From Gemmatimonadaceae bacterium (GTDB taxonomy: Bacteria; Gemmatimonadota; Gemmatimonadetes; Gemmatimonadales; Gemmatimonadaceae), in the NCBI GenBank assembly GCA_030647905.1, contig JAUSJA010000014.1:1-64000 (forward strand): a stretch of 64,000 nt of DNA, read 5' to 3'. Both the position numbers and the translations under genes were made by a program. Numbering within the stretch: position 1 is the first letter of the stretch; each line of letters begins with the position of its first letter. The notes beneath the pieces were generated by a model, which was given only the letters and a program-made list of their open reading frames with translations, had not been told where the DNA came from and did no database searches. Shown here piece by piece: positions 45,453 through 59,972 of the stretch.

Positions 45453-45935
45453 TCAGCTTCCCGGGACAGGCGGCCTGTACCGGAGAGCTTCTGCGATGTG
45501 CAGCTCGGCCACCGAGGGGGAGTCATCCATGTCGGCGATTGTCCGCGCCACCTTCAGGACGCGATGGTACCCGCGCGCGGAAAGCGACAGCGAGGTTGCC
45601 GCCGTCTGGAGCAATCCGCGCGCGGCCGGGGCGATGCCGCCGTGCTCGTCGAGCCACCGCCCCGGCGCGTGAGCGTTGCAGCCAACGCCATGCAAGCGCG
45701 CGAACCTCCGCTGCTGCCGGCCCCGCGCAGCCCCTACGCGGGCGCGGATGGCGGCGGTCGTTTCTCCGGCGGCCGGCGAGCTCAAGTCGCGCAGAGCCAC
45801 GGGGCCGACGGTCACCCGCATGTCGATCCGGTCAGCCAGCGGACCTGACATGCGGCGACCGTATCGCTCGACTTCCGACGCAGGACAGACACATCGCCCG
45901 GAAGGATCGCCGAAGCGCCCGCACGGACACCCTTG
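45453..45935 (-). pseudogene. comM: comM 3' remnant (YifB-type Mg-chelatase-like AAA ATPase)
   Basis: About 160 codons of the C-terminal part of a ~500-aa ComM. The frame shows GCPCGRFGDPSGRC with its Cys pairs, MSGPLADRIDMRV (sensor/arginine region), GETTAAIRARVGAARGRQ, and the C-terminal LSARGYHRVLKVARTIADM and HIAEALRYRP blocks. Similarity stops a few codons before the CPCG motif, where an unrelated HTH gene begins in the opposite direction. The Walker A and B regions are absent, so the product cannot act as a helicase loader. The break marks the left edge of the accessory island. Confidence 0.88.
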
Positions 45936-47424: not shown

Positions 47425-48369
47425 TCAGAGCAAGAGTTCGGCGTACACTGGAAAGTATCTGTAAATCTCCCGGTACGACGCGATGTCTTCCGGGGCCATC
47501 TCGAACTCCTTCGGCTTCCAATCGTCACCACACGGCATGTGATGGTCGAGCGCGGTCCTCTCCTTCCGCGTTAATATCGGCACCCGAATGTGGTACGGAG
47601 AGAGTGTGACGTTCTGTCGGATGAAGGGAGCTCTCGAAAAATCGCAGCCGCCTACGACCCGCGCATCGGCGTCCGTGCCAATCATGCCACCGACCGTGAG
47701 CATCGGATGCCCGTCCTCGTAGAGAAAATTGAACAAGGGGATGAAATGCACGTTGGGGCGACTCGAAAGCCCCGAGTTGATGGCGTTGAACAAGACTTGG
47801 GCGTTTGTATTCGGAAGCGACTCTTGCGCGAACTCGTTTTCGGCGGTCCATCCCGGCCCGAAAAACTTGCCAACCTCGTCTTCGTAGAAATCGAACCAGT
47901 CGGTCGGCCCACCTTCGTCGGGCCGTTTCACATCGACTGTGACCAATAGAATTGAACCGGGCGAAAGGACAAACGAGGCCATCGCGGCGTCGTCCACCGC
48001 GATCTTGTTCATGCGAAAATCGTAGTCGAGCCAGAGAATGTGTTTCTGGTCGCGGTCCAGCTTTGGAATCACATCCTCCGCTTTCGACATCTCGATGCCG
48101 ACCGCCGAAAATGGCTTGTTGAACTTGATCCGCTTACGGATCGTTTTGTCTTTCTCAACCGTGAGCATCCGGCGGACGCCGAGGAGCTTGTGGACCAAAA
48201 TGAAATCGACAAAAAAGATCGAGCCAAATCCGGTGTACTGGGAATCTCGGATCGGGAAGCCCGCTGCGGCGAGAATCATCAGGGTATCAATGATCATGCG
48301 TCGCTCGATCTGCTTCGCCGTTCGCAGATCGTAGGGAACTTTCTTGTAGCTCTCGGTTGCTGTTGTCAC
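47425..48369 (-). CDS. Rossmann-like protein, possibly a SAM-dependent methyltransferase, of a three-gene cassette
   Basis: 314 residues from GTG 48369, which overlaps the GHKL gene stop (GTGA); GTG 48378 is an alternative. The central part reads as a Rossmann fold: 'DSQYTGFGSIFFVDFILVHKLLG', 'RMLTVEKDKTIRKRIKFNKPFSAVGI' and 'HILWLDYDFRM'. The acidic residue at the end of strand 2 (VEKD) fits SAM binding, but the glycine loop is weak. The rest has no motif I recognise. It is the third gene of an operon with a GHKL ATPase and a DNA methyltransferase, so a DNA-modification or defence role is likely (inference). Confidence 0.6.
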   Translation of the reverse strand: MTTATESYKKVPYDLRTAKQIERRMIIDTLMILAAAGFPIRDSQYTGFGSIFFVDFILVHKLLGVRRMLTVEKDKTIRKRIKFNKPFSAVGIEMSKAEDVIPKLDRDQKHILWLDYDFRMNKIAVDDAAMASFVLSPGSILLVTVDVKRPDEGGPTDWFDFYEDEVGKFFGPGWTAENEFAQESLPNTNAQVLFNAINSGLSSRPNVHFIPLFNFLYEDGHPMLTVGGMIGTDADARVVGGCDFSRAPFIRQNVTLSPYHIRVPILTRKERTALDHHMPCGDDWKPKEFEMAPEDIASYREIYRYFPVYAELLL

Positions 48370-49703
48370 TCCGCGCACTCCATGCGAAGGAAATACTTGA
48401 AGGTGTGGAGACCGACCGCACCGGCGCCCATTGAGGGTTTGTTGATCTTCTTCTTGATTTGCTCGACATCCGCCAAGGGCGCGCTGTACTGAACGGACAC
48501 ATTCTTCTTCGCCTGGCGAATGACCTTCGCTGTAAAGGCTGCGTTCGGCTTCGCGGTTATCGAGCGCAGATCGACAACCGTCAGCTTGTCCACCATGGTC
48601 CGCTCCGCGACATCCGGAGCCGGTTCGCTCGGATACATATTGTTCAGGAAGGTCAGCACGGGCCGCGCGGTAGCCATCATCTCAAGGCGGGTGCGGAGAT
48701 AGGCTTCCGATTCTTGGTTCAGACCCCGCTTCGTCGTCGTCCAGGGCAGAGAGGCTGGGTTCTCCGAGAAGAAAAACGCGATCCCGACGAATCCGCGGTA
48801 CTTGCTAACGAACTGCGGGCCGTTGAGGCCCCACCCGGTTGTCTCCGTCTTGTCGGCATGAACAACAACTCGGCCATTACAGAGGACGTACCAACCAGCG
48901 CGATCGATATTCCACTCCCCGGCCTTTCTTCCGGCCAACCCCGCAAAGAGTTCAACCTTCACGTCACCGAAGGTGAGTTCGCGAAAAGCCGGTTCCAGAT
49001 CTGCGGAGCTGCCAAGCGGAAGGGGCTTCGCGGCCACCGGCTTGTCGTTAAGGGTGATGTGTAGGAATCGTCCCAGGAACAGCGTGTAGGTGCTGGAAAG
49101 CCCCTCGAAGAGGCGCCTCATCAGGACGGGATCCTTGATGCGCAGTAGCACCTCGGGCGTGAGCTTACGGATGGTTATGGTCGTTCCCGCCTGCGCCTTT
49201 GATTTCGCCTTCGGAGCGACTTCGAAGGGAATCATCCAGCTGTCTTCCCCAGCCCACTTATTCACGTCGAGTCTCATCAGGAATCCATCATTTTCGGTGT
49301 GGGATTGGATCGTGATGTCTCGCCCGATCTTGAAGATTGCGCGTTTCAGCCCGATGCCGTAGACGCCAAGGGCGCTCTCAATCTCTGAGTCGACCCTGCC
49401 AATCCTAAACACTTCAGTTTCCGCCCTGTCAACGGCGATGCCACCGCATCGGTCTGCGATGACAATTTCGTTCGCGTTGACAGTTATCTTGATCGGGGGC
49501 GCCGCCGGAGCACTCGCGGGAAGTCCGCCGCCGTCAATGGCACCTCGGAGCAAGGCAGGTGACACGTCGATATTCCGAGTTCTGATGAACGCATCGATCG
49601 AGTTATCCACGAGGTCGAGAATCGCGTCTTCGAGGGTCAGATCCCGAGTCAGGTTATCGATGAAGAAGCGCTTCGTCGGTGTCGCATCGGCTTGAAGAGT
49701 CAT
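48366..49703 (-). CDS. GHKL-fold (Hsp90/MutL-like) ATPase
   Basis: 445 residues from ATG 49703 (ATGA overlap with the methyltransferase stop). The Bergerat ATP site is complete: N-box TLEDAILDLVDNSIDAFI, G1 VIADRCGGIAV and G2 'GVYGIGLKRAIFKIG'. This is the HATPase_c_3 type found in MutL, Hsp90 and MORC proteins. A transducer-like domain (about 190-320) follows. The C-terminal third lacks recognisable catalytic motifs. GHKL ATPases of this type have been described in restriction-modification-like operons, and the adjoining DNA methyltransferase gene supports that context. Confidence 0.85.
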   Translation of the reverse strand: MTLQADATPTKRFFIDNLTRDLTLEDAILDLVDNSIDAFIRTRNIDVSPALLRGAIDGGGLPASAPAAPPIKITVNANEIVIADRCGGIAVDRAETEVFRIGRVDSEIESALGVYGIGLKRAIFKIGRDITIQSHTENDGFLMRLDVNKWAGEDSWMIPFEVAPKAKSKAQAGTTITIRKLTPEVLLRIKDPVLMRRLFEGLSSTYTLFLGRFLHITLNDKPVAAKPLPLGSSADLEPAFRELTFGDVKVELFAGLAGRKAGEWNIDRAGWYVLCNGRVVVHADKTETTGWGLNGPQFVSKYRGFVGIAFFFSENPASLPWTTTKRGLNQESEAYLRTRLEMMATARPVLTFLNNMYPSEPAPDVAERTMVDKLTVVDLRSITAKPNAAFTAKVIRQAKKNVSVQYSAPLADVEQIKKKINKPSMGAGAVGLHTFKYFLRMECAE

Positions 49704-50512
49704 TTCTTTTCCCGGGTAGAGGCCTTGAGGCTGTCTAGGCGCCTTTCGATGACGCGACAATTGTCCTTCACAGCGTCGCAGGCCGCAAATCGCATCCCGT
49801 GTGTCACGGCCGAAACAAGAGCACTTCCACTTCCTGCGAACGGATCGACTGCAAGGCCACCCTTCGTGCCGCTGATGTGGAACACGCGATCAGTGACACT
49901 CAGCGGAAGCTGATTCTGCTTTCGCAACTTGGTGCTCGCATGGCGAACCGGGCTAACGTCGTCCCAAAAATCGCTGAGGTTGATGCCCTTCTTCTCGATG
50001 ATCGTTCGATAGCCCCCGTAGTCTTTGACGGTCTTCTTGCAGTAGCGGCAAACAACGGGCTTGACCTTCGGCCGTCGGAAGTTCTTCGGGGGTCCTTTCG
50101 TGAAGTACAGGAGCGAGTAGTGCGCTGGATATAGGCGTTTGCCTCGAACGAATCCGTTCTTCATCGAGATGGCGATCCAGTGGCGCAGAACAAGATCCCG
50201 TTCGACGATGCCGCCAAGCCGCATGGCCCAAATCGGGATGTGGTAGAGGTAGAGCGCTCCACCCGGAGCCAACACCCGGATCGCCTGTTTCAGGATGGTT
50301 TCCATCCAGGCCTGATAAACGGCCTCGGGCTGGTTATCCTGTGTGCGTTTCCTTGAGTTGTATTTTTTCCCCAGGTTAAAAGGGGGATCAAGAAAGACAA
50401 TCGATGCCGACCCGTCATCCAGCGACTCTAGGAGGTCAAGCGCGTCCCCATGGTACAGTCGGCCACGTGCACTGACCCTATCGAAGGCGCGAAATATTTT
50501 GAGCTCGGCCAA
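49700..50512 (-). CDS. DNA adenine- or cytosine-N4 methyltransferase (beta class)
   Basis: 270 residues. The catalytic motif IV is VFLDPPFNLGKK (residues about 39-50) and the SAM-binding motif I comes near the C-terminus as VDPFAGSGSALV; this order is the beta class of N6A/N4C methyltransferases. The central target-recognition part contains a CRYCKK pair that may begin a zinc-binding element. The start is TTG 50512 with GAGG five bases upstream; no in-frame ATG exists. First gene of the minus-strand cassette with the GHKL ATPase and the Rossmann protein. No separate restriction endonuclease is evident. Confidence 0.9.
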   Translation of the reverse strand: MAELKIFRAFDRVSARGRLYHGDALDLLESLDDGSASIVFLDPPFNLGKKYNSRKRTQDNQPEAVYQAWMETILKQAIRVLAPGGALYLYHIPIWAMRLGGIVERDLVLRHWIAISMKNGFVRGKRLYPAHYSLLYFTKGPPKNFRRPKVKPVVCRYCKKTVKDYGGYRTIIEKKGINLSDFWDDVSPVRHASTKLRKQNQLPLSVTDRVFHISGTKGGLAVDPFAGSGSALVSAVTHGMRFAACDAVKDNCRVIERRLDSLKASTREKK

Positions 50513-50936: not shown

Positions 50937-50987
50937 GCTGCAAAGGTCTGCAGCGGAAGCCGTTGCAGAGGTGGAAGTTGAGCTCAG

Positions 50988-51034
50988 TCGGGGCGACTGG
51001 ATTTGAACCAGCGACCTCACGCTTATCAGGCGTG
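50988..51034 (-). repeat. 3' fragment of tRNA-Ile(GAT), probable attachment-site scar
   Basis: On the minus strand CACGC-CTGATAA-GCGTG (anticodon stem-loop with GAT), AGGTC, GCTGG-TTCAAAT-CCAGT (T arm) and CGCCCCG plus discriminator A reproduce the 3' 47 nt of a tRNA-Ile exactly. Upstream of the anticodon stem no D arm or 5' acceptor strand is present; instead the stop codon of ATPase 1 lies 13 bases away. This is the classic form of an attR left by a tyrosine-recombinase element entering the anticodon loop. The element should lie on the right side. Confidence 0.85.
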
Positions 51035-51046
51035 CCGGCCCGAGAT

Positions 51047-54000
51047 CTATTCTGAGCCTACGTCCGAGGTGGAACGCCGCTTCCGTGTCGCGAGCCAGGC
51101 GTCGAGCTCGTCCCGCTCATAGAGGACTCTCCGCCCCACCTTGAAGTACGGCGGCGAGTCGCCACTCCATCGCAGCTTGGCGAGGGTCTGTGTCGCGAGG
51201 CCGAGGTAGGCGGCAGCATCTTCGGCAATGAGCATACGCTGCGTCTCGGGAGCCTCCTTGCTATGCCCTTGGCCGCCCCCCCGAGACTTGATCGGGTGCA
51301 TCTCGTCCACCGGCAACTTCGGACTTTCGAATTCATCCAGGAACCCGATGAAGTCGTCCGGCGAGAGGAATCGAACACGCTTCTCGTCAACTTCGCCGAA
51401 AAGCGTTCGCGCTTCCGAGAGGGTCCGCTCATCCGGACTCACGAGAACCGCGTAGCCGAATCCGGCGGACAAGCACTTCGAGAGATTCTGAGTCTCGTGC
51501 TCAGCGCGCGTGCTCACCGAAATTTCGCAGCCAATAGAGAGTTCTTCCCGTTCGAGATAGACGTCAATGTGACCGTGACCATCGAGCACGCGCGTTTCTA
51601 CGGTCACCTTGAACCCGCGATCTTCGGCCAATTTGCGTATTAGCGACTGAAGATATTTGTGCTGAGGTCCGCCACGGCCGGGAAGATGATCGGCGGGTGG
51701 AGTCGAGACGGGTGTCGGCGAGGTTGTCTCTGGTCGTGATGTACGCCTTTTCGCAGTTCGGACCTCCTCGACTTCTCCGCTTCGTTCTGCTGCACCCCGT
51801 GCGCGGAGATCCGATTCAACCTCCTCTTTCGGCGTTGCGAAGTTCGTGCGTGACGCGTAAAGAACTGCATTCCGGCGACTTCGGCCAACGTCTTCTGGTA
51901 CTGGCGCGAGCGGAGAGGTCCGAAGGTTGAAGTCGAAATCCGGACGCTCGATTCGAGCGATTGCTTCGCCGATGCCAAGGTTCTGCAAGTCGTTGGCTTC
52001 GAAGAACGAGAATCCGTCCGCGAGCGTTTTCGCGTCCTGATCTCCCACGCGAAAGACGATGCGGGTAAATGCGTTCCCGAGCGCTGCGCTCGCGACCTCT
52101 TCGCTCCGACTCTTGAGCTGTCGCATCTCTTGATGCGCAAGAGTGAGACCGAGTCCGTACTTGCGAGCGCCAGAGAGAATAGCCGCCAGCGACGGCGTAA
52201 TGAAGTTCTGGAACTCGTCGATATAAAGGAAGAATGGAACTCGCGCCGCCGCCGCTTCGTCCTGCCGACTCATCGCCGCCTGGGCAATCTTCGCCACGAT
52301 GAGCGACCCGAGGAGATGCGAGTTCTCCTCGCCGATCCCACCTTGGGAAAGCTTCGCGACGAGAATCTTCTTCCCATCCATGATGGCTCGCATGTCGAGG
52401 CGATCTTCCTTCTGCGCCACCATGTGCCGAATGAGCTTCGGTCGGAGGAAAGTATTGAGGCGGGTCAGGATGGGAGCGTGCGGTAACCCCTTCAGAAGCG
52501 TGAACTCTTCCTGCCAGTACGAGACGACGTGTTCGTCCTGCACGGTTTCAAGGAACCGCGCTCGGAAACTCTTGTCGATAAGAAATCGGCGGAGATCGAG
52601 AAGAGTCCCGCCGTCGGTACTTTCAAGGAATGCGAGGATCGCATTCCCGAGCACCGCCACCATCTGATCCCCGAAACTCGTAGAGAGACGTTTGAAGACC
52701 GCTACCAAGTCGGACGATAGAAGCGTCCGTTCGAGTTCCGAATGCGCCGAAAGAATGTTGAAACCGACGGGGTAGGCTTCGTCTGCAGGATCGAAGACGA
52801 CAACGTCGCCCGCACGTTCCTCCGGAATACGTGCCAGGATGTCCTCGATGAGGTCGCCGTGCGGGTCAAGAACAGCGAAGCCATTACCGGCTGCGATGTC
52901 TTGCATCGCCATCGAGAGAAGGAGTGTGCTTTTCCCCGTGCCACTCGCTCCGATGACGTAGGTGTGCCGCAGGCGTTCTTCCGTGGAGAGGGACACCTGG
53001 AGCGTCTCTCCATCGTGCTCATTCGCACCGAGAAGAAGACCGCGCCCGACAGCGGATGCCGGAGCTGATTTCGTGCGCGCGCCCTGTCGTACCAGACGCT
53101 CAGAACGCACGGAAGTGGATGGCGGGTGAAGCAGCGTCAGGATTTCGGATAGTGAGAGCAGCATGCCGCTCCGATGGGCGGCGCGGTCCAGGAGGTCTTC
53201 AACCTCAGTCTCAAAGGAGTGTTCGCCCGAGTCAGCGAGAACCAGTTCGTTTGCCTCAGAGCGCATAGCCCCGGACACCGCGTACGCCAAGTTCCGCGCC
53301 CTTTCAACGGCGCGATCTTTCTCGGGTGCAATTGCTGCCACCCGAAGAACCGCGGCGAAAAGCGGCTCCGAGAACTTGGAACGAATAAGCGGAAGAACGC
53401 TGTCCGCATCTTCGATGCTTAATGCGAAGTTCTCGAACTCCTCTCCCCACGGTTCCTTCGCCGGTTCTACAATCAGCTGAACAAGGCCAAGCTCTCCCTC
53501 CGAGAGTCGGTTCAACTCTCCAATGATTCCGATGAGAGGATCGACGTCGAACTTGTCCTCGGTCCGAAGCTCCCTGAAGACGCGTTCCTCGAGACCGAAA
53601 CCGAGAATGACGCCGTATCCTTCATCTCGCTCCCATTCTTGCCGCAGGAAGTCTCTTCTCTCTCGGGCTTTCGCTTCGGGGAAATAGGAGCGCATCGAGC
53701 CAATTATGGATGCGGAATCCAGTACGCCGCAGGCGAGCTGCACCACTACTCTATCCGGCAGCCCAAGCACTTCAAAACTCAAGGGCTCGGTGAGGCTCCG
53801 CAGAGATGCCAGCCAGCTTCTCGCCGCGCCCGGCTTCACGGCGAAGTCCGCCGAAAGAAGAAGCTCGAACTCGACAATCTCCCTCTGAATCGCGGACCGG
53901 GGCGTCTCCGTGGATTCCGCTACTCCGCTCGGCGCCGGCTCATGGATTGTCGGGCGCGGGCGATCAAACAGTCCGGGCCTGCGCGCGTCGTCAAGAATGG

Positions 54001-54133
54001 GCTTCGGCGTCCGCTCCTTTGGAAAGAGTGGCGAGTACGCCGGTTCGATCGGAACACGTTGTGACGACGTGGTCACGCCACGGGTCCGCCCCTCCCACTG
54101 ATCAAAGAGGCGGAGGATGTCGGTCGGATGCAT
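51047..54133 (-). CDS. HerA/TraG-like ATPase fused to a PD-(D/E)XK-like domain and an excisionase-type HTH
   Basis: 1028 residues, complete. Residues about 1-350 have no recognised fold. The ATPase domain has Walker A VIGASGTGKSTLLL (near 395), VLDPHGDLIEDIL, and Walker B FFLYIDEFQNF (near 638), as in DUF87/TraG/HerA-like transfer ATPases. A segment near 820-930 has the alpha-beta-beta-beta-alpha-beta order of restriction-endonuclease-like folds, with D in HIDVYL and E in GCEISVST (the usual ExK Lys is not seen). The C-terminus (about 966-1018, EDAAAYLGLATQTLAKLRW ... VLYERDELDAWLA) is a HTH_17/AlpA excisionase domain. The start lies one base after the membrane-protein stop. Confidence 0.85.
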   Translation of the reverse strand: MHPTDILRLFDQWEGRTRGVTTSSQRVPIEPAYSPLFPKERTPKPILDDARRPGLFDRPRPTIHEPAPSGVAESTETPRSAIQREIVEFELLLSADFAVKPGAARSWLASLRSLTEPLSFEVLGLPDRVVVQLACGVLDSASIIGSMRSYFPEAKARERRDFLRQEWERDEGYGVILGFGLEERVFRELRTEDKFDVDPLIGIIGELNRLSEGELGLVQLIVEPAKEPWGEEFENFALSIEDADSVLPLIRSKFSEPLFAAVLRVAAIAPEKDRAVERARNLAYAVSGAMRSEANELVLADSGEHSFETEVEDLLDRAAHRSGMLLSLSEILTLLHPPSTSVRSERLVRQGARTKSAPASAVGRGLLLGANEHDGETLQVSLSTEERLRHTYVIGASGTGKSTLLLSMAMQDIAAGNGFAVLDPHGDLIEDILARIPEERAGDVVVFDPADEAYPVGFNILSAHSELERTLLSSDLVAVFKRLSTSFGDQMVAVLGNAILAFLESTDGGTLLDLRRFLIDKSFRARFLETVQDEHVVSYWQEEFTLLKGLPHAPILTRLNTFLRPKLIRHMVAQKEDRLDMRAIMDGKKILVAKLSQGGIGEENSHLLGSLIVAKIAQAAMSRQDEAAAARVPFFLYIDEFQNFITPSLAAILSGARKYGLGLTLAHQEMRQLKSRSEEVASAALGNAFTRIVFRVGDQDAKTLADGFSFFEANDLQNLGIGEAIARIERPDFDFNLRTSPLAPVPEDVGRSRRNAVLYASRTNFATPKEEVESDLRARGAAERSGEVEEVRTAKRRTSRPETTSPTPVSTPPADHLPGRGGPQHKYLQSLIRKLAEDRGFKVTVETRVLDGHGHIDVYLEREELSIGCEISVSTRAEHETQNLSKCLSAGFGYAVLVSPDERTLSEARTLFGEVDEKRVRFLSPDDFIGFLDEFESPKLPVDEMHPIKSRGGGQGHSKEAPETQRMLIAEDAAAYLGLATQTLAKLRWSGDSPPYFKVGRRVLYERDELDAWLATRKRRSTSDVGSE

Positions 54134-54134
54134 G

Positions 54135-54791
54135 CTAGGAGAGAGCGCTTCGAGACTGTGGCTTCAGTTTCTCAGCCGGTATCTCGGGGAGCTTGTTGAT
54201 GGTGAGGATTCCCTCCACCACCTGGACCACCACGCGATGAACGGTATCCTCAAACATCAATCGAGTGTCTTCGGAGTAGTACGTGACGGGATTCACGAAC
54301 TTCTTGTAGAGAAGCCCGATGATCGGCATGACCAAGATTGTGTCTTCGATTGCACTCCACCCGTCCGCGAAGGCGCCTCGTAGAATGGCTGTCCCGACGC
54401 CGACCGCGACCAGAGCGAAGAGGATGCCCTTGAAAAACCCCATCGCCCCAATGAAGACGAGAGTGAGGAACGAGAGGCCGACGAGACTCGCGCAGCCCCA
54501 AAGGGCCGCGAAGCCAGGTATTCGCTTGACGAGCCACCACGAGAAGAAGAAGTCCTTGCCGAACGGGGCGCCGCAGATGTCGAAGCTGAGACGTCCATAC
54601 CGGGCACGCAGATACTCGCGCTTGGCGGACAGGATACCGGACTCGCTCGCAGTGATCCGCTCGATTTGCAACTCAGGCACTTCCTTGTCCCGAAGCGCCT
54701 TCTCGACGGCCGCGTAGTAATCAAGGGTCGAGGTGCTCAAGCCCTCGACGGACTGGTGCCAGTGCGAGATGACCTCCACCGACTGTGCCAT
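54135..54791 (-). CDS. Membrane protein between the two transfer-type ATPases
   Basis: 218 residues. A soluble N-terminal part of about 80 residues (helical; EKALRDKEVPELQIERI) is followed by two to three hydrophobic segments (about 92-145: FAALWGCASLVGLSFLTLVFIGAMGF and FKGILFALVAVGVGTAIL) and a polar C-terminal tail with 'RLMFEDTVHRVVVQVVEGIL'. No known family recognised. An AGGAGG site five bases before the ATG predicts strong translation. It is coupled to ATPase 1 (stop and start one base apart), so the two products may form a membrane-associated complex (inference). Confidence 0.75.
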   Translation of the reverse strand: MAQSVEVISHWHQSVEGLSTSTLDYYAAVEKALRDKEVPELQIERITASESGILSAKREYLRARYGRLSFDICGAPFGKDFFFSWWLVKRIPGFAALWGCASLVGLSFLTLVFIGAMGFFKGILFALVAVGVGTAILRGAFADGWSAIEDTILVMPIIGLLYKKFVNPVTYYSEDTRLMFEDTVHRVVVQVVEGILTINKLPEIPAEKLKPQSRSALS

Positions 54792-54844
54792 CCTGCCTCC
54801 TGTCAGGGGGAACGAACCTAGGAAGAGAGCGCGATGAGGCGGGT

Positions 54845-54908
54845 GGCGGAAGGGTGGTGGCTGAATATGGTCGTGAAGACTCTCCGTCTATGAGGAGACG
54901 GAGATAGA
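54845..54908. repeat. Direct repeat A: displaced 3' end of the ATPase 2 gene (left boundary of the TIR cassette)
   Basis: 64 bp that match 58704-58767 at 61 positions. Read on the minus strand it still encodes YLRLLIDGESSRPYSATTLP, the C-terminus of ATPase 2, although no complete gene is attached. It contains a perfect inverted repeat TCTCCGTCT-ATGAGG-AGACGGAGA (54881-54904, arms of 9, spacer of 6). It lies in the 162-bp gap between the membrane-protein gene and the AAA-TIR gene, for which no clear promoter was found. Confidence 0.9.
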
Positions 54909-54953
54909 TTCTGTAGTCTCTCGTCAAATTTCGATTCAGTCCTGACCTAGCCA

Positions 54954-57161
54954 ATGCCCAAGAACGTTCCTTCCCCACCCGAGGTCTGGGTTGAAGGTGA
55001 AAAGATCCCTGACGGCCGCCTGGAGAACATCTTCCGGGCGCCACCGGGAGCACCACCTAGCTTCGTTCGAAGCTCGTTGATAGTCGGATCTCGTGGGGTC
55101 GGAAAGACTGTGTTGCTTCGTCACCACAAACAAACCCATCGCGGGATCGCCGTGAGTGTGGCGTTGGCAGCTGAACTCGCGAGCATCACAAAGCAGACAG
55201 GCCATGGACCGCTGTCCTCCGACTATTCGGCTGCGATGGAGGGACTCATCAGTAGCAAGGCTACCTCGTTACTCGCCGTGAGCATCGCTGAGCGGGTGAC
55301 CCGCAAGGGAATAGGCGTGGCCGCCGAAATCATCAATCCTTGCCTGCCCCGAAGCCTTCGGATCACCGCTGGTCTCATCGAACCGCAGGCCCTAAGTGAT
55401 CTCAGAGAAAAACTCGCCGAGGCCCCAGTACAAGATTTCATTGGCATCGATCTGAGGCGCGCACTACCAGAGAGTGTCAGTGCGTTAGCGAGCTTGGGAC
55501 AGACGTCGCACGGACCGCTGCTTCTGTTGCTGGATAAGGCGGACATGGTGCCCACGCCCGCACTGATTCCGGTCCTTGAACTGCTAGATCAGTCCAACGA
55601 GTACGTTGTCCTCGTCGCCCTCCGCCCGGGCCATGGCGGCTACACGATGAGCCGACAGGACGACGTGACCGGCGGTGACCATTACGCGATCGCGCACCTT
55701 GGCACTAATCCGCGGTCAACTGAGTGGCGCGCGTTTGTGGCTTCAGCTGTAGAAGCCCAACTCGGCGCCGCGTATCACTCGATCCCGTCCGAAGTGCGTG
55801 ATGAAGTCATCACCCTCTCGAGAGACTCTGTTCGCAACGCACTTGAGATCTTTGTCCGGTACCTCAGTGTTTCGCATGATGAGGCGAAAGAACAGCTTGT
55901 TGCCGCGCTGGACGACTACCGTGAGAATACGCTGCATGCTGCACAAAGCACACTTCAGCGGTTTCATCCAAGTTTTCGCGGAATGATTCGGCAGTTGCGT
56001 GAGGAAGCACTGGTACGACCCGGCCGAATCGACGGCCCGGTTTACCTTAGAGTAAACAGTCAGGCACCGGGCGATCTCTTCGGAACGCCCAGCGCCTTCA
56101 ACAGTTTTGTAGAGATGGCGCTTAGGACTGGAGCCATTGCCATGCCTGAAGGGGCCAGATGGATGCCCGGTGTCACCCCTTCACTAATTGAAATACCACC
56201 GATACTCACTTGGGAAAAGGGCGATCCACCTTGGAGTTCGCTTCAGCCCGCGCCGATCGTTCTAGTCCATACCGAGGCTCGGGCGCTAAGTGCAGGTGGC
56301 GGAGCAGTGAAGCCGCCTCACATCTTCGTGGCCTATCGCTTTCGCATCAACGAGAGCGTGCAGTTCCGCCGAGAATTGGCGAGCGCGATGGAACATCATC
56401 GAACACTCTCCCGAGTTGTACTCGAAGACGGCAGAGTACCGCACGGCGATCCCTGGGCACAGTCGGTCCGCGATCGCATCCGCCGCTCAAAGCTGGTAGT
56501 GGGTGATGTTACGGGCGTAACCTGCGAGGTCATGTTCGAGTTAGGATTTGCCTACGGCTTGGGGAAGAGTCGCATTCCCGTAGTTGCCGATCATGCTGCG
56601 TTGAAGACGATGCCCCGCTGGCTCACAGCGACCCAAACGGCGACGTTCGGCAGCGCCGATGAAATGCAGGCGTTGCTGAATAGCATCCAGGTCCAGCTTG
56701 CGGATCCCAGGCAACACAAGCCAAAGCAGCCCGTCCCGGGACTGGCAGTGTGGCTACGATCATTGGATTGGAACAAGCACGCGCTTGAGCAGTCGATAAC
56801 GGCGGCGGGCCGGGAAGGTCTTTCCATAGAATGCTTCGACACCAGCACAAGCGAAGAACGCCTAATCGAGCGCGCCGCTCAAGCAACGCTGGTTGTTGCC
56901 AGTTTTGATGGAACGCTTAACGACAGCATCGCACATTTTGTCTGCGGCGCAGTCGTAGCGATGCCCAGAGCGATGCAGCTCCAACGGCAACTTATCCTGA
57001 TTGAAGAGCATGGCGCGCAACCAGGAACATGGGTTGCCGACAGCTTGCGGAGGTGCACGGACATCGCCACGCTAATGGGGCTTGAAGATGTCCCAGCAGC
57101 TATTCGGCAGTTTGGCCAGCGATATCGCAAGTGGTCAACGTCGAAGGGAAACGAGGAATGA
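54954..57161 (+). CDS. P-loop ATPase with tandem TIR/nucleoside-deoxyribosyltransferase-like domains
   Basis: 735 residues. Walker A is SLIVGSRGVGKTVLL (near 42-56); the expected Walker B is LLLLLDKADMVP, where Lys replaces the usual catalytic Glu. A helical segment (about 270-440) resembles the arm of STAND/AAA proteins. From about 455 there is a Rossmann domain: PHIFVAYRF, WAQSVRDRIRRSKLVVGDVTG, then CEVMFELGFAYGLGK, with Glu placed as in nucleoside 2-deoxyribosyltransferases and TIR-like glycosidases. A second, weaker Rossmann unit follows (about 595-720, 'RLIERAAQATLVVASFDG'). An intact sensor-NTPase plus nucleotide- or NAD-cleaving effector is the likely plan (inference). It overlaps the next gene by four bases. 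Confidence 0.75.
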   Translation: MPKNVPSPPEVWVEGEKIPDGRLENIFRAPPGAPPSFVRSSLIVGSRGVGKTVLLRHHKQTHRGIAVSVALAAELASITKQTGHGPLSSDYSAAMEGLISSKATSLLAVSIAERVTRKGIGVAAEIINPCLPRSLRITAGLIEPQALSDLREKLAEAPVQDFIGIDLRRALPESVSALASLGQTSHGPLLLLLDKADMVPTPALIPVLELLDQSNEYVVLVALRPGHGGYTMSRQDDVTGGDHYAIAHLGTNPRSTEWRAFVASAVEAQLGAAYHSIPSEVRDEVITLSRDSVRNALEIFVRYLSVSHDEAKEQLVAALDDYRENTLHAAQSTLQRFHPSFRGMIRQLREEALVRPGRIDGPVYLRVNSQAPGDLFGTPSAFNSFVEMALRTGAIAMPEGARWMPGVTPSLIEIPPILTWEKGDPPWSSLQPAPIVLVHTEARALSAGGGAVKPPHIFVAYRFRINESVQFRRELASAMEHHRTLSRVVLEDGRVPHGDPWAQSVRDRIRRSKLVVGDVTGVTCEVMFELGFAYGLGKSRIPVVADHAALKTMPRWLTATQTATFGSADEMQALLNSIQVQLADPRQHKPKQPVPGLAVWLRSLDWNKHALEQSITAAGREGLSIECFDTSTSEERLIERAAQATLVVASFDGTLNDSIAHFVCGAVVAMPRAMQLQRQLILIEEHGAQPGTWVADSLRRCTDIATLMGLEDVPAAIRQFGQRYRKWSTSKGNEE

Positions 57162-58693: not shown

Positions 58694-59878
58694 TCAGAAC
58701 GGCGGCGGAAGGGTGGTGGCTGAATATGGTCGTGAGGCTTCTCCGTCTATGAGGAGACGGAGATAGACGTGGTAGCGAGGAAGGCTGATGAAATCCTCCG
58801 CCGAGAAGACAGGCGCGAACTCGCGCGCCAGAAACGCTCCGTCGGCCGCTCCGACTCGAAACGAGATAATCGTGCCCGCGTTGCCGAAGACAGCGTCCCG
58901 GATGGCGGGATCGAGCTGCGAGAGGTGTTGGTTGGCGAGAACCATTCCGACACGGTACTTCCGAAGCTCAACGAGCATCGTCGCCACCGAGAGCGTGGTG
59001 AAGGTCTGAAACTCATCAAGCACGATGGCGAAATCTCTTCGCTCCGCTTCTGGAGTATCGGATCGCGCTACGGCTGAGAGAGCCAAGTGAGAAACGAGAA
59101 ACGAACCGAGGGTAGCGGCCGGTCCTTCGCCGATCCGCCCCTTGTCCAGATTGACGAGGAGAAATTTCCCAGCGTCCATGATCTGGCGCAGGTCGAGCCA
59201 CTCACCCGGTTCGGTGAGAATACGACGGAGGATCGGGTCCGTGAGGGGGGCGCCGATCTTGTTTTGAAGCGGCGCGACTACGACTGAGCGAAAACCCGGC
59301 GAGTACTTCTCGAATTCGTTCGTCCAGAACTCCTTGACCACCGGGTCCTCGATGCTCGCGATTATCCCGGACCGGAAGGTGCGATCCGCGATCAATCGCG
59401 GGATGTCTGCGAGCGACGAGTCCGGTCGTTCGAGCAGCGTGAATACCACGTTCCGCAGAAGATGCTCGAGACGCGGACCCCAGTCGTCCGACCAGATCTT
59501 CTTGAAGACCTCGACGAGCCCGGCCGCGGCGAGAGCGCGATGGCTTGGCGCGATGCCAGCGAAAGGGTTGAATCGGTAGCGAAGGGATGGATCTGCCGCA
59601 TCGAGGAGCACGATGTTCTGTCGGCCAGATTCGGGAACGCATCTCAAGGCTGCACGAACGAGATCGCCATGCGGATCGATCAGTGCGCCGCCGCGCTCCG
59701 CGAGAATGTCCTGGCACACGATGTTCTGCAGGAGCGTAGACTTGCCCGTGCCAGTCTTGCCGATGATCGCAATGTGACTCCGGCGGTCGAGCTGTCGAAT
59801 GCCAAATATCCTTTCGCTACGGCTGGTGTTAGTGCGTCCAAGATACGTGACTGCGGAGTCTCCGTTGATCGATTTCAT
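58694..59878 (-). CDS. TraG/TraD-like transfer ATPase (ATPase 2)
   Basis: 394 residues from ATG 59878. Walker A IIGKTGTGKSTLLQNIV, then ALIDPHGDLV, and Walker B AIVLDEFQTF define a VirD4/TraG-type hexameric pump or HerA-like ATPase. 'RKYRVGMVLANQHLSQLD' is the sensor segment. Unlike ATPase 1 it has no added N- or C-terminal domains. The extreme C-terminus (YLRLLIDGEASRPYSATTLP) is encoded by direct repeat B, so the reading frame seems to have been completed by the inserted cassette. The frame is open 31 codons further upstream (to 59971) without obvious function. Confidence 0.88.
   Translation of the reverse strand: MKSINGDSAVTYLGRTNTSRSERIFGIRQLDRRSHIAIIGKTGTGKSTLLQNIVCQDILAERGGALIDPHGDLVRAALRCVPESGRQNIVLLDAADPSLRYRFNPFAGIAPSHRALAAAGLVEVFKKIWSDDWGPRLEHLLRNVVFTLLERPDSSLADIPRLIADRTFRSGIIASIEDPVVKEFWTNEFEKYSPGFRSVVVAPLQNKIGAPLTDPILRRILTEPGEWLDLRQIMDAGKFLLVNLDKGRIGEGPAATLGSFLVSHLALSAVARSDTPEAERRDFAIVLDEFQTFTTLSVATMLVELRKYRVGMVLANQHLSQLDPAIRDAVFGNAGTIISFRVGAADGAFLAREFAPVFSAEDFISLPRYHVYLRLLIDGEASRPYSATTLPPPF
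58704..58767. repeat. Direct repeat B: 3' end of ATPase 2 (right boundary of the TIR cassette)
   Basis: 61 of 64 bases match 54845-54908 in the same orientation; the three differences are clustered next to the inverted repeat. The core TCTCCGTCT-ATGAGG-AGACGGAGA (58740-58763) is identical in both copies. Here the repeat is part of the intact ATPase 2 gene, which ends nine bases beyond it. Confidence 0.9.
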
Positions 59879-59972
59879 CCTCCCATTGTGATCGCCGGGC
59901 GGCCAACCTTCGCAGAGGGAACTTTCTGCACGGCTGGGGAGGCTGCCCGCGAGGAGTCGCGGAGCGAGCAAA

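What the first reader, a model, noticed from the sequence alone, without database searches (positions are those of the whole stretch)
47425..50512. DNA methyltransferase-GHKL ATPase-Rossmann protein cassette without a nuclease
Three overlapping minus-strand genes (ATGA and GTGA junctions) combine a beta-class DNA methyltransferase with a complete Hsp90/MutL-type ATPase and an unknown Rossmann protein. GHKL ATPases in restriction-like loci are known, but I do not recognise this exact trio; no restriction nuclease is visible, so a new defence or epigenetic system is possible.
Basis: partly seen in the sequence, partly recalled or inferred. Interest (0 to 1): 0.65.

Follow-up and report, generated by a model that had tools for sequence, protein, structure and literature searches.

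The report
Mobile methylase–ATPase defence-like gene cassette
A mobile set of three bacterial genes pairs a DNA-marking enzyme with an energy-driven clamp protein and a second methylating-type enzyme; it recurs across unrelated bacteria without a DNA-cutting enzyme and looks like an unnamed way of telling self DNA from foreign DNA.

Summary
In detail: three overlapping minus-strand genes encode a beta-class DNA methyltransferase (49700-50512), a GHKL ATPase (48366-49703) and a 314-aa protein (47425-48369). No nuclease gene adjoins them.

The 314-aa protein belongs to Pfam PF20553 (Methyltransf_35). Its predicted fold (pLDDT 93) is a class I SAM methyltransferase. The conserved core is the ATPase+Methyltransf_35 pair, not the trio. 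In 40 cytosine-methylase loci the two proteins' distance matrices correlate at r=0.96, against 0.27-0.32 with the neighbouring methylase.

In 64 of 70 distinct loci the pair lies within 5 kb of a DNA-modification gene: C5 methylase 48, beta methylase 6, PAPS-reductase-like 6, Dnd phosphorothioation 3, MmeI/DISARM 1. The window's own version spans six phyla; in three beta-type loci it sits among housekeeping genes.

None of the databases searched names it. Best reading (confidence 0.5): a restriction-modification-like defence module in which the modification enzyme marks self and the pair surveys and acts on unmarked DNA without its own nuclease. Defence and the enzyme's substrate are untested. 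I rate it a new variant of the GHKL-containing restriction-modification kind.

The parts
49700..50512 (-). beta-class DNA methyltransferase, 270 aa (N6-adenine or N4-cytosine; the DPPF motif suggests N6-adenine, from recall)
   Evidence: Pfam N6_N4_Mtase 2.4e-23; PADLOC MTase_II PDLC03238 4.5e-68; PDB relatives include MboIIA and RsrI; 43-59% identical in L025-L028
48366..49703 (-). GHKL ATPase, 445 aa; ATGA overlap with the MTase stop
   Evidence: HATPase_c_3 2e-13; AlphaFold2 pLDDT 90.2; Foldseek best matches TRAP1/Hsp90, MORC3, MORC2, SMCHD1; invariant N, D, G and K positions in 61 homologues
47425..48369 (-). Methyltransf_35 protein (PF20553), 314 aa; GTGA overlap with the ATPase stop; predicted class I SAM methyltransferase, substrate unknown
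   Evidence: PF20553 4.3e-80; AlphaFold2 pLDDT 93.2; VIA-align Z 14.1 to Trm1 3axs, tied with other class I methyltransferases; ten invariant residues in 60 homologues

Best explanation
A mobile, restriction-modification-like defence cassette that works without its own nuclease. Step 1 (inferred from family): the DNA methyltransferase marks the host genome. Step 2 (inferred from the MORC/MutL-type fold): the GHKL ATPase dimerises on ATP binding, clamps DNA and surveys it. Step 3 (inferred from obligate pairing and position): unmarked DNA triggers the paired Methyltransf_35 enzyme, which acts as effector or adaptor, probably by a SAM-dependent reaction on nucleic acid that blocks the invader or the cell. 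Shown here: the pair is one co-inherited unit; its modification partner is exchangeable (5mC, beta-class base methylation, phosphorothioation, DISARM/MmeI); the beta-class trio moves between phyla as a self-contained unit; the putative catalytic residues of all three proteins are kept.
For: Pair adjacency in 62 of 70 ATPase-anchored loci; in 13 of 14 PF20553-anchored places an ATPase gene lies upstream, the 14th being cut by its contig end. Distance correlation OMT-ATPase 0.958, OMT-C5 0.316, ATPase-C5 0.272 over 40 loci. 64 of 70 distinct loci have a DNA-modification gene within 5 kb, concentrated in the first 1.5 kb: 57 against 7 further out. Partner type changes 9 times on the tree, shuffled mean 17.5. 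The beta-type trio lies alone between frr and dxr in L027, between MacB/FtsX and OPT transporter genes in L025, and between gyrB and comM in L030. A C5 version is carried as three genes by filamentous phage PfAC20. In sister phage two-gene systems (C5 MTase plus longer GHKL protein, no PF20553) the ATPase C-terminus matches PD-Lambda-5_A, a tested anti-phage system described as RM+Abi (PMC9519451).
Against: No phage or methylome data. 12 of 48 C5 loci also carry HNH or PD-(D/E)XK-type nuclease genes, one beta locus has type III R-M genes, and the Microvirga pair sits inside a DISARM locus, so the pair can accompany systems with their own effectors. The third protein resembles an active methyltransferase, which equally fits a modification role. 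Two loci (L072, L094) show the pair with no modification gene seen.
Confidence: 0.5

Rival explanations
1. The pair belongs to the modification side: the GHKL ATPase loads the modification enzyme or moves it along DNA, and the Methyltransf_35 enzyme adds a second mark. The trio is then an epigenetic or self-protection system rather than a restriction system.
For: The pair nearly always neighbours modification genes (64 of 70) and the third protein looks like an intact class I methyltransferase. It also accompanies complete restriction systems.
Against: A common second mark on 5mC, m6A/m4C and phosphorothioate DNA would be odd chemistry. Complete modification systems of each kind work without the pair elsewhere (recalled). 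The MTase varies while the pair does not, which fits a reader better than a writer.
Confidence: 0.2
2. The pair is an accessory of classical R-M systems; a nuclease acts in trans or has been lost at many loci, and the window trio is a remnant or borrows a host nuclease.
For: Vsr in 23 and other nucleases in 12 of 48 C5 loci; a type IIG-like protein lies about 20 kb from the window trio in the same contig; GHKL proteins with nucleases in R-M operons are known (PMC2292703).
Against: Vsr occurs in 0 of 16 non-C5 loci (Fisher p 2.4e-4), as expected of 5mC repair rather than restriction. No member of the four nuclease clusters is in any of the 6 beta, 6 PAPS or 3 Dnd loci. The beta-type trio stands alone among housekeeping genes.
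Confidence: 0.15
3. The cassette is a selfish or anti-restriction module of mobile elements: the MTase shields the element and the pair punishes its loss, as in post-segregational killing by R-M systems, with little benefit against phage.
For: Carried by a filamentous phage, plasmids and viral contigs; a tRNA-Pro fragment adjoins the window trio.
Against: The beta-type trio lies among chromosomal housekeeping genes in several phyla, and defence and addiction are not exclusive.
Confidence: 0.1

Closest known systems
MORC/paraMORC GHKL ATPases of restriction-modification operons (Iyer, Abhiman and Aravind 2008, PMC2292703)
   Same: GHKL domain plus a following alpha+beta domain beside DNA methylases in laterally mobile operons; fold match to MORC2, MORC3 and SMCHD1
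   Different: Those operons mostly pair with SFII helicases and endonucleases; the parts read (1-3 of 4) describe no methyltransferase-fold partner gene other than DNA methylases, and here the fixed partner is PF20553
PD-lambda-5 (Vassallo 2022, PMC9519451)
   Same: Small, often prophage-borne system with a methylase, read by its authors as compacted RM+Abi; its A protein shares a C-terminal region with the longer sister GHKL proteins
   Different: The window ATPase has no PD-Lambda-5_A match and the Methyltransf_35 gene stands in place of that C-terminal region
DISARM
   Same: The pair is inserted between the MmeI-type methylase and drmA in a Microvirga plasmid DISARM locus
   Different: No drmA, drmB or drmC at the window trio
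Dnd/Ssp phosphorothioation systems
   Same: The pair adjoins dndC/D/E with dndA or dndB in L066 and L069, and dndC/D with a DndE-HerA protein in L057; a PAPS-reductase-like gene in six Clostridia-type loci
   Different: No sulphur-modification genes in the window; none of the neighbours scanned matched DndF or DndG, and only the L057 DndE-HerA protein matched DndH models
MZA system (MzaB ATPase)
   Same: Weak similarity of the GHKL domain to MzaB (19.5 bits)
   Different: Far below the NCBIfam cut-off of 850 bits

Membership tests
MORC/paraMORC R-M systems | GHKL ATPase domain with conserved ATP-binding motifs followed by an S5-like domain | tested here: met
   Pfam HATPase_c_3, motifs, AF2 model and Foldseek to MORC/Hsp90 over the two-domain module
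MORC/paraMORC R-M systems | SFII helicase and endonuclease partner in the operon (about 70% of MORC operons have the helicase, per PMC2292703) | tested here: not met
   No such gene adjoins the window trio; among the six beta loci only L028 was seen to have type III genes
MORC/paraMORC R-M systems | MORC-specific S5 motif or the paraMORC1-5 family signatures | not tested
   Family alignments were not at hand
Type II restriction-modification | DNA methyltransferase | tested here: met
Type II restriction-modification | Cognate restriction endonuclease at the locus | tested here: not met
   None among the six window proteins scanned in and upstream of the trio
PD-lambda-5 | PD-Lambda-5_A protein | tested here: not met
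   No match for the window ATPase or PF20553 protein, nor for the L061 pair or the L065 ATPase
DISARM | DrmA, DrmB and DrmC | tested here: not met
   Not among the window neighbours scanned; present in L004
Dnd/Ssp | DndC/SspD-type sulphur enzymes | tested here: not met
   Not at the window; present in L057, L066 and L069
MZA | MzaB equivalog score | tested here: not met
   19.5 bits against a cut-off of 850
Class I SAM methyltransferase (third protein) | Seven-stranded Rossmann-like fold with SAM-binding motifs | tested here: met
   AF2 model and VIA-align Z 11.6-14.1 to many class I methyltransferases; G50, G52, E75 and D118 conserved in 58, 59, 59 and 60 of 60. SAM binding itself not tested
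O-methyltransferase (Pfam name) | Methyl transfer to an oxygen | not testable with these tools
   Name only; structural matches include N-, C- and 2'-O-methyltransferases of nucleic acids

The most novel reading that the evidence does not exclude
The GHKL ATPase plus Methyltransf_35 pair is a modification-agnostic non-self reader-effector. It can be plugged onto 5mC, m6A/m4C, phosphorothioate or DISARM marking systems, and it disables unmarked invader DNA (or its transcripts) by a SAM-dependent chemical modification instead of cutting: restriction by methylation.
Probability: 0.2. Interest if true: 0.88.

Novelty: new variant of a known kind. Interest (0 to 1): 0.62.

Why it matters
Reading the absence of a host mark is usually tied to one chemistry and one nuclease. 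Here the same two-gene unit sits beside several unrelated DNA-marking chemistries, and many of the loci have no recognised nuclease (23 of 48 C5 loci lack all four nuclease clusters). If it defends, it shows a general reader that can be rewired between marks, and possibly a nuclease-free effector. It would also explain 'incomplete' or 'orphan' methylases: a 2025 Pf-phage study called the PfAC20 cytosine methylase an incomplete R-M system (PMC11878078, passages), although the ATPase and PF20553 genes lie directly upstream.

Tried and rejected
Third protein as a housekeeping enzyme: rejected, PF20553 in 2 of 395 genomes of the phylum and 0 of 14 control genomes. Third protein as a disguised nuclease: not supported, the model is a class I methyltransferase. 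Sequence search of the PDB with the PF20553 profile gave only two weak, unrelated-looking hits (E 0.13 and 0.53). The C-terminal extension of the longer sister ATPases as a hidden PF20553 domain: not supported (hhalign probability 0.2%), and no clear PDB relative. Vsr as the missing nuclease: unlikely, because it tracks C5 methylases only. The Deinococcus m4C R-M paper as a description of the system: rejected on passages, its nuclease is GIY-YIG. DefensePredictor (passages and legends) lists a HATPase domain but nothing tying it to this system. The Dnd reappraisal paper (abstract, outline and passages) gave no hit for MORC, Hsp90, histidine kinase or HATPase; its listing counts 0 for GHKL. Paper searches that did not list a description of the pair: (0 papers for Methyltransf_35 or PF20553); the library lacks preprints and most subscription papers. 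The OMT search of viral contigs with the window subclade alone found nothing. Flank comparison with same-genus genomes gave only partial 66-76% matches in the comM-like part and was not pursued to an empty site.

Limits of the census: genes were called by a greedy longest-ORF script, which overlooked one OMT (L068, recovered), one ATPase (L031) and the OMT of L004. Loci were found with ATPase- or OMT-based patterns, so they are not a random sample. Dropped before the count of 70: L013 (same contig as L006), L002 (same 75,545-base contig length as L061), L001 (the window itself), L089-L091, L095, L099-L101 (contigs already held) and L096-L098 (same contigs as L092-L094). The distance test still held L002. 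'None' loci: L024, L029, L055 and L067 are cut by contig ends; L072 and L094 are not clearly so.
Full report
Observation. Pfam identifies N6_N4_Mtase, HATPase_c_3 and Methyltransf_35/PF20553 'Putative O-methyltransferase'. PADLOC names only the MTase (the ATPase has two weak hits, E 0.0024 and 0.02). Residue numbers below are those of alignments A5 (Methyltransf_35 'OMT', 317 aa, from base 48378) and A6 (ATPase, 443 aa, from base 49697, two residues short of the ATG start).

What the third protein is. With 60 homologues (A5) AlphaFold2 gives pLDDT 93.2. The 50 listed VIA-align rows have Z 14.1-11.6; the top is tRNA methyltransferase Trm1 3axs (Z 14.1, 223 aligned, 4.0 A), tied within 1 of RlmI-like enzymes and spermidine synthase. 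It is thus a class I methyltransferase fold without a specific family. Ten residues are invariant in 60 of 60 (R19, K22, R26, Y48, D58, W116, D118, D222, M226, E273) and the SAM-motif positions G50, G52 and E75 are nearly so. An active enzyme is therefore likely; its substrate is unknown.

The ATPase. The model (pLDDT 90.2) matches Hsp90/TRAP1, MORC3, MORC2 and SMCHD1. N32, D82, G85, G86, G116, K118 and K323 are invariant in 61; the position aligned with the usual catalytic Glu (recalled from MutL) is Asp in 54 and Glu in 7.

The conserved unit is a pair. ATPase-based scans gave 16 viral and 54 genomic loci. An OMT gene follows in 62 of 70: 9 of 16 viral and 53 of 54 genomic (L068 by hand). 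The eight without it are L015, L017 and L020-L023, whose ATPases are longer (573-631 aa), L019, which could not be resolved, and L062, which has one long and one normal-length ATPase and no OMT found. Gene junctions lie between -80 and +13 nt in 64 of 65 scored pairs; the other, L003, has about 3 kb between the genes (ORFs were called from the first possible start, so overlaps are upper bounds). From the OMT side, 14 distinct places (2 genomes, 2 plasmid records, 1 phage, 9 viral contigs) have an ATPase upstream in 13; in L007 the contig begins at the OMT. Across 40 loci with one C5 methylase each, OMT and ATPase distances correlate at 0.958, OMT-C5 at 0.316 and ATPase-C5 at 0.272 (permutation p 0.0005 each).

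The partner is a DNA-modification gene, exchangeable in kind. In 70 distinct loci the partner within 5 kb is a C5 methylase in 48, a beta methylase in 6, a PAPS-reductase-like gene in 6, Dnd genes in 3, MmeI in a DISARM locus in 1, none in 6. Marker genes per 1.5-kb bin and side fall from 0.456 (57 genes) to 0.027, 0.029, 0, 0.011, 0 and 0 further out. The labels C5, beta, PAPS, Dnd and none need 9 changes on the OMT tree against a shuffled mean of 17.5. Dnd identities rest on Pfam and PADLOC and, for the DndC/DndD clusters, on profile membership. One PAPS locus (L051) also has a DndA/SspA-like cysteine desulfurase.

The window's own branch. Window, L024, L025, L026, L027 and L028 form a starred clade (99) from Chloroflexota, Acidobacteriota, Pseudomonadota, Abditibacteriota and Verrucomicrobiota, besides the window's own phylum, inferred to be Gemmatimonadota because G066, of the same class, and the Gemmatimonadetes record behind L061 share a contig length. 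MTase identities are 59, 55, 53 and 43% to L025, L026, L028 and L027; the order MTase-ATPase-OMT is kept, with the MTase reversed in L027. L024's 4.1-kb contig shows no MTase; an ABC-transporter-like frame lies upstream. The trio lies between frr and dxr in L027, MacB/FtsX and OPT genes in L025, and (for the more distant L030 trio) gyrB and comM (a few unscanned ORFs lie between some of these). L028 adds type III R-M genes and a UvrD helicase.

Nucleases. By four cluster profiles, Vsr occurs in 23 of 48 C5 loci and 0 of 16 loci with other partners (Fisher p 2.4e-4). HNH or PD-(D/E)XK-like genes (c2, RE7; the 'EAK' and 'QAK' motifs are my reading, RE7 is PADLOC REase_II) occur in 12 of 48 and 0 of 16 (p 0.028). 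23 of 48 C5 loci have none of the four. Vsr repairs 5mC deamination products (recalled), so its pattern looks like a repair add-on. Other nuclease families beside the pair were not exhaustively searched: L037 has an mREase_IV-like and L051 a PbeA-like and a DrmC-like gene.

Mechanism. Iyer et al. proposed that MORC and paraMORC ATPases of R-M operons loop DNA between recognition and cleavage sites (PMC2292703, parts 1-3 of 4 read). A MORC-like clamp fixed to a methyltransferase-fold protein, beside whatever enzyme marks self, is best read as a surveillance-and-response pair. A sister arrangement supports the response role: viral-contig two-gene systems of C5 methylase plus longer GHKL protein lack the OMT, and their ATPase C-terminus matches PD-Lambda-5_A (best 3.6e-12). 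PD-lambda-5 is experimentally protective and was read as compacted RM+Abi (PMC9519451, passages and section 7). Clamp, sensing and effector steps are inference.

Against this reading: some pairs accompany complete restriction systems (12 C5 loci, DISARM, type III), two loci show no modification gene, and nothing here measures defence.

Known or new. No model in PADLOC 2023 or NCBIfam June 2026 names the pair; PHROGs hold both as unknown. The searches listed under Tried and rejected found no paper describing it in the held library. I file it as a new variant of GHKL-containing R-M-like systems, with the modification-agnostic pair as the new element.

Noticed in passing
window 50987-51020 (-): A 3' tRNA fragment identical to part of tRNA-Pro(CGG) lies just upstream of the trio; the genome holds two intact copies and another fragment on contig C25, suggesting past tRNA-targeted integration.
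   Followed up: partly
window 45453-45851 (-): An ORF that looks like the 3' end of comM (my reading of the translation), recalled as an island insertion gene; the distant beta trio L030 also lies beside comM.
   Followed up: partly
window 51047-54133 (-): A 1028-aa TraD/HerA-like ATPase with a C-terminal excisionase-type HTH_17 domain and mad8/DndH matches; may belong to the 'HerA/FtsK capture' theme of PMC10853773.
   Followed up: no
window 54721-55056 (-) and 58694-59971 (-): The two ORFs share a near-identical C-terminal stretch (YLRLLIDGE.SRPYSATTLPPP), suggesting a truncated second copy of the TraD-like ATPase.
   Followed up: no
window 54954-57161 (+): A 735-aa ATPase with a weak nucleoside-deoxyribosyltransferase/TIR-effector-like stretch: another candidate defence gene.
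   Followed up: no
L088 4792-7980 (-) and 1671-3101 (-): Beyond the window the same contig carries a type IIG-like R-M protein and an OLD/GajA-like ATPase: the trio lies in a defence island.
   Followed up: partly
L015, L017, L020-L023: Viral-contig two-gene systems: C5 methylase plus a 573-631-aa GHKL ATPase; the ATPase C-terminus matches PD-Lambda-5_A in the four scanned, L017 and L020 clearly, L021 and L023 weakly. The ATPase-fused form seems unnamed.
   Followed up: partly
L035, L037, L043, L045, L051, L068: Clostridia-type trio of a stand-alone PAPS-reductase-like protein (BrxP/SspD-like), the GHKL ATPase and Methyltransf_35; in L051 with a DndA/SspA-like gene. A possible compact sulphur-modification system.
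   Followed up: partly
L004 6558-8978: The pair is embedded between the MmeI-type methylase and drmA of a Microvirga plasmid DISARM locus.
   Followed up: partly
L003 3671-8816: In Sinorhizobium meliloti psymA the pair is split by about 3 kb of transposase-like sequence and the OMT start is missing: probably an inactivated copy.
   Followed up: no
L005 268-3711, L007, L076: Near-identical C5 versions of the trio in Pf phage PfAC20 and a Pseudomonas yangonensis genome, and its OMT and methylase in a viral contig cut at the OMT (tree); the phage's methylase was reported as an incomplete R-M system.
   Followed up: partly
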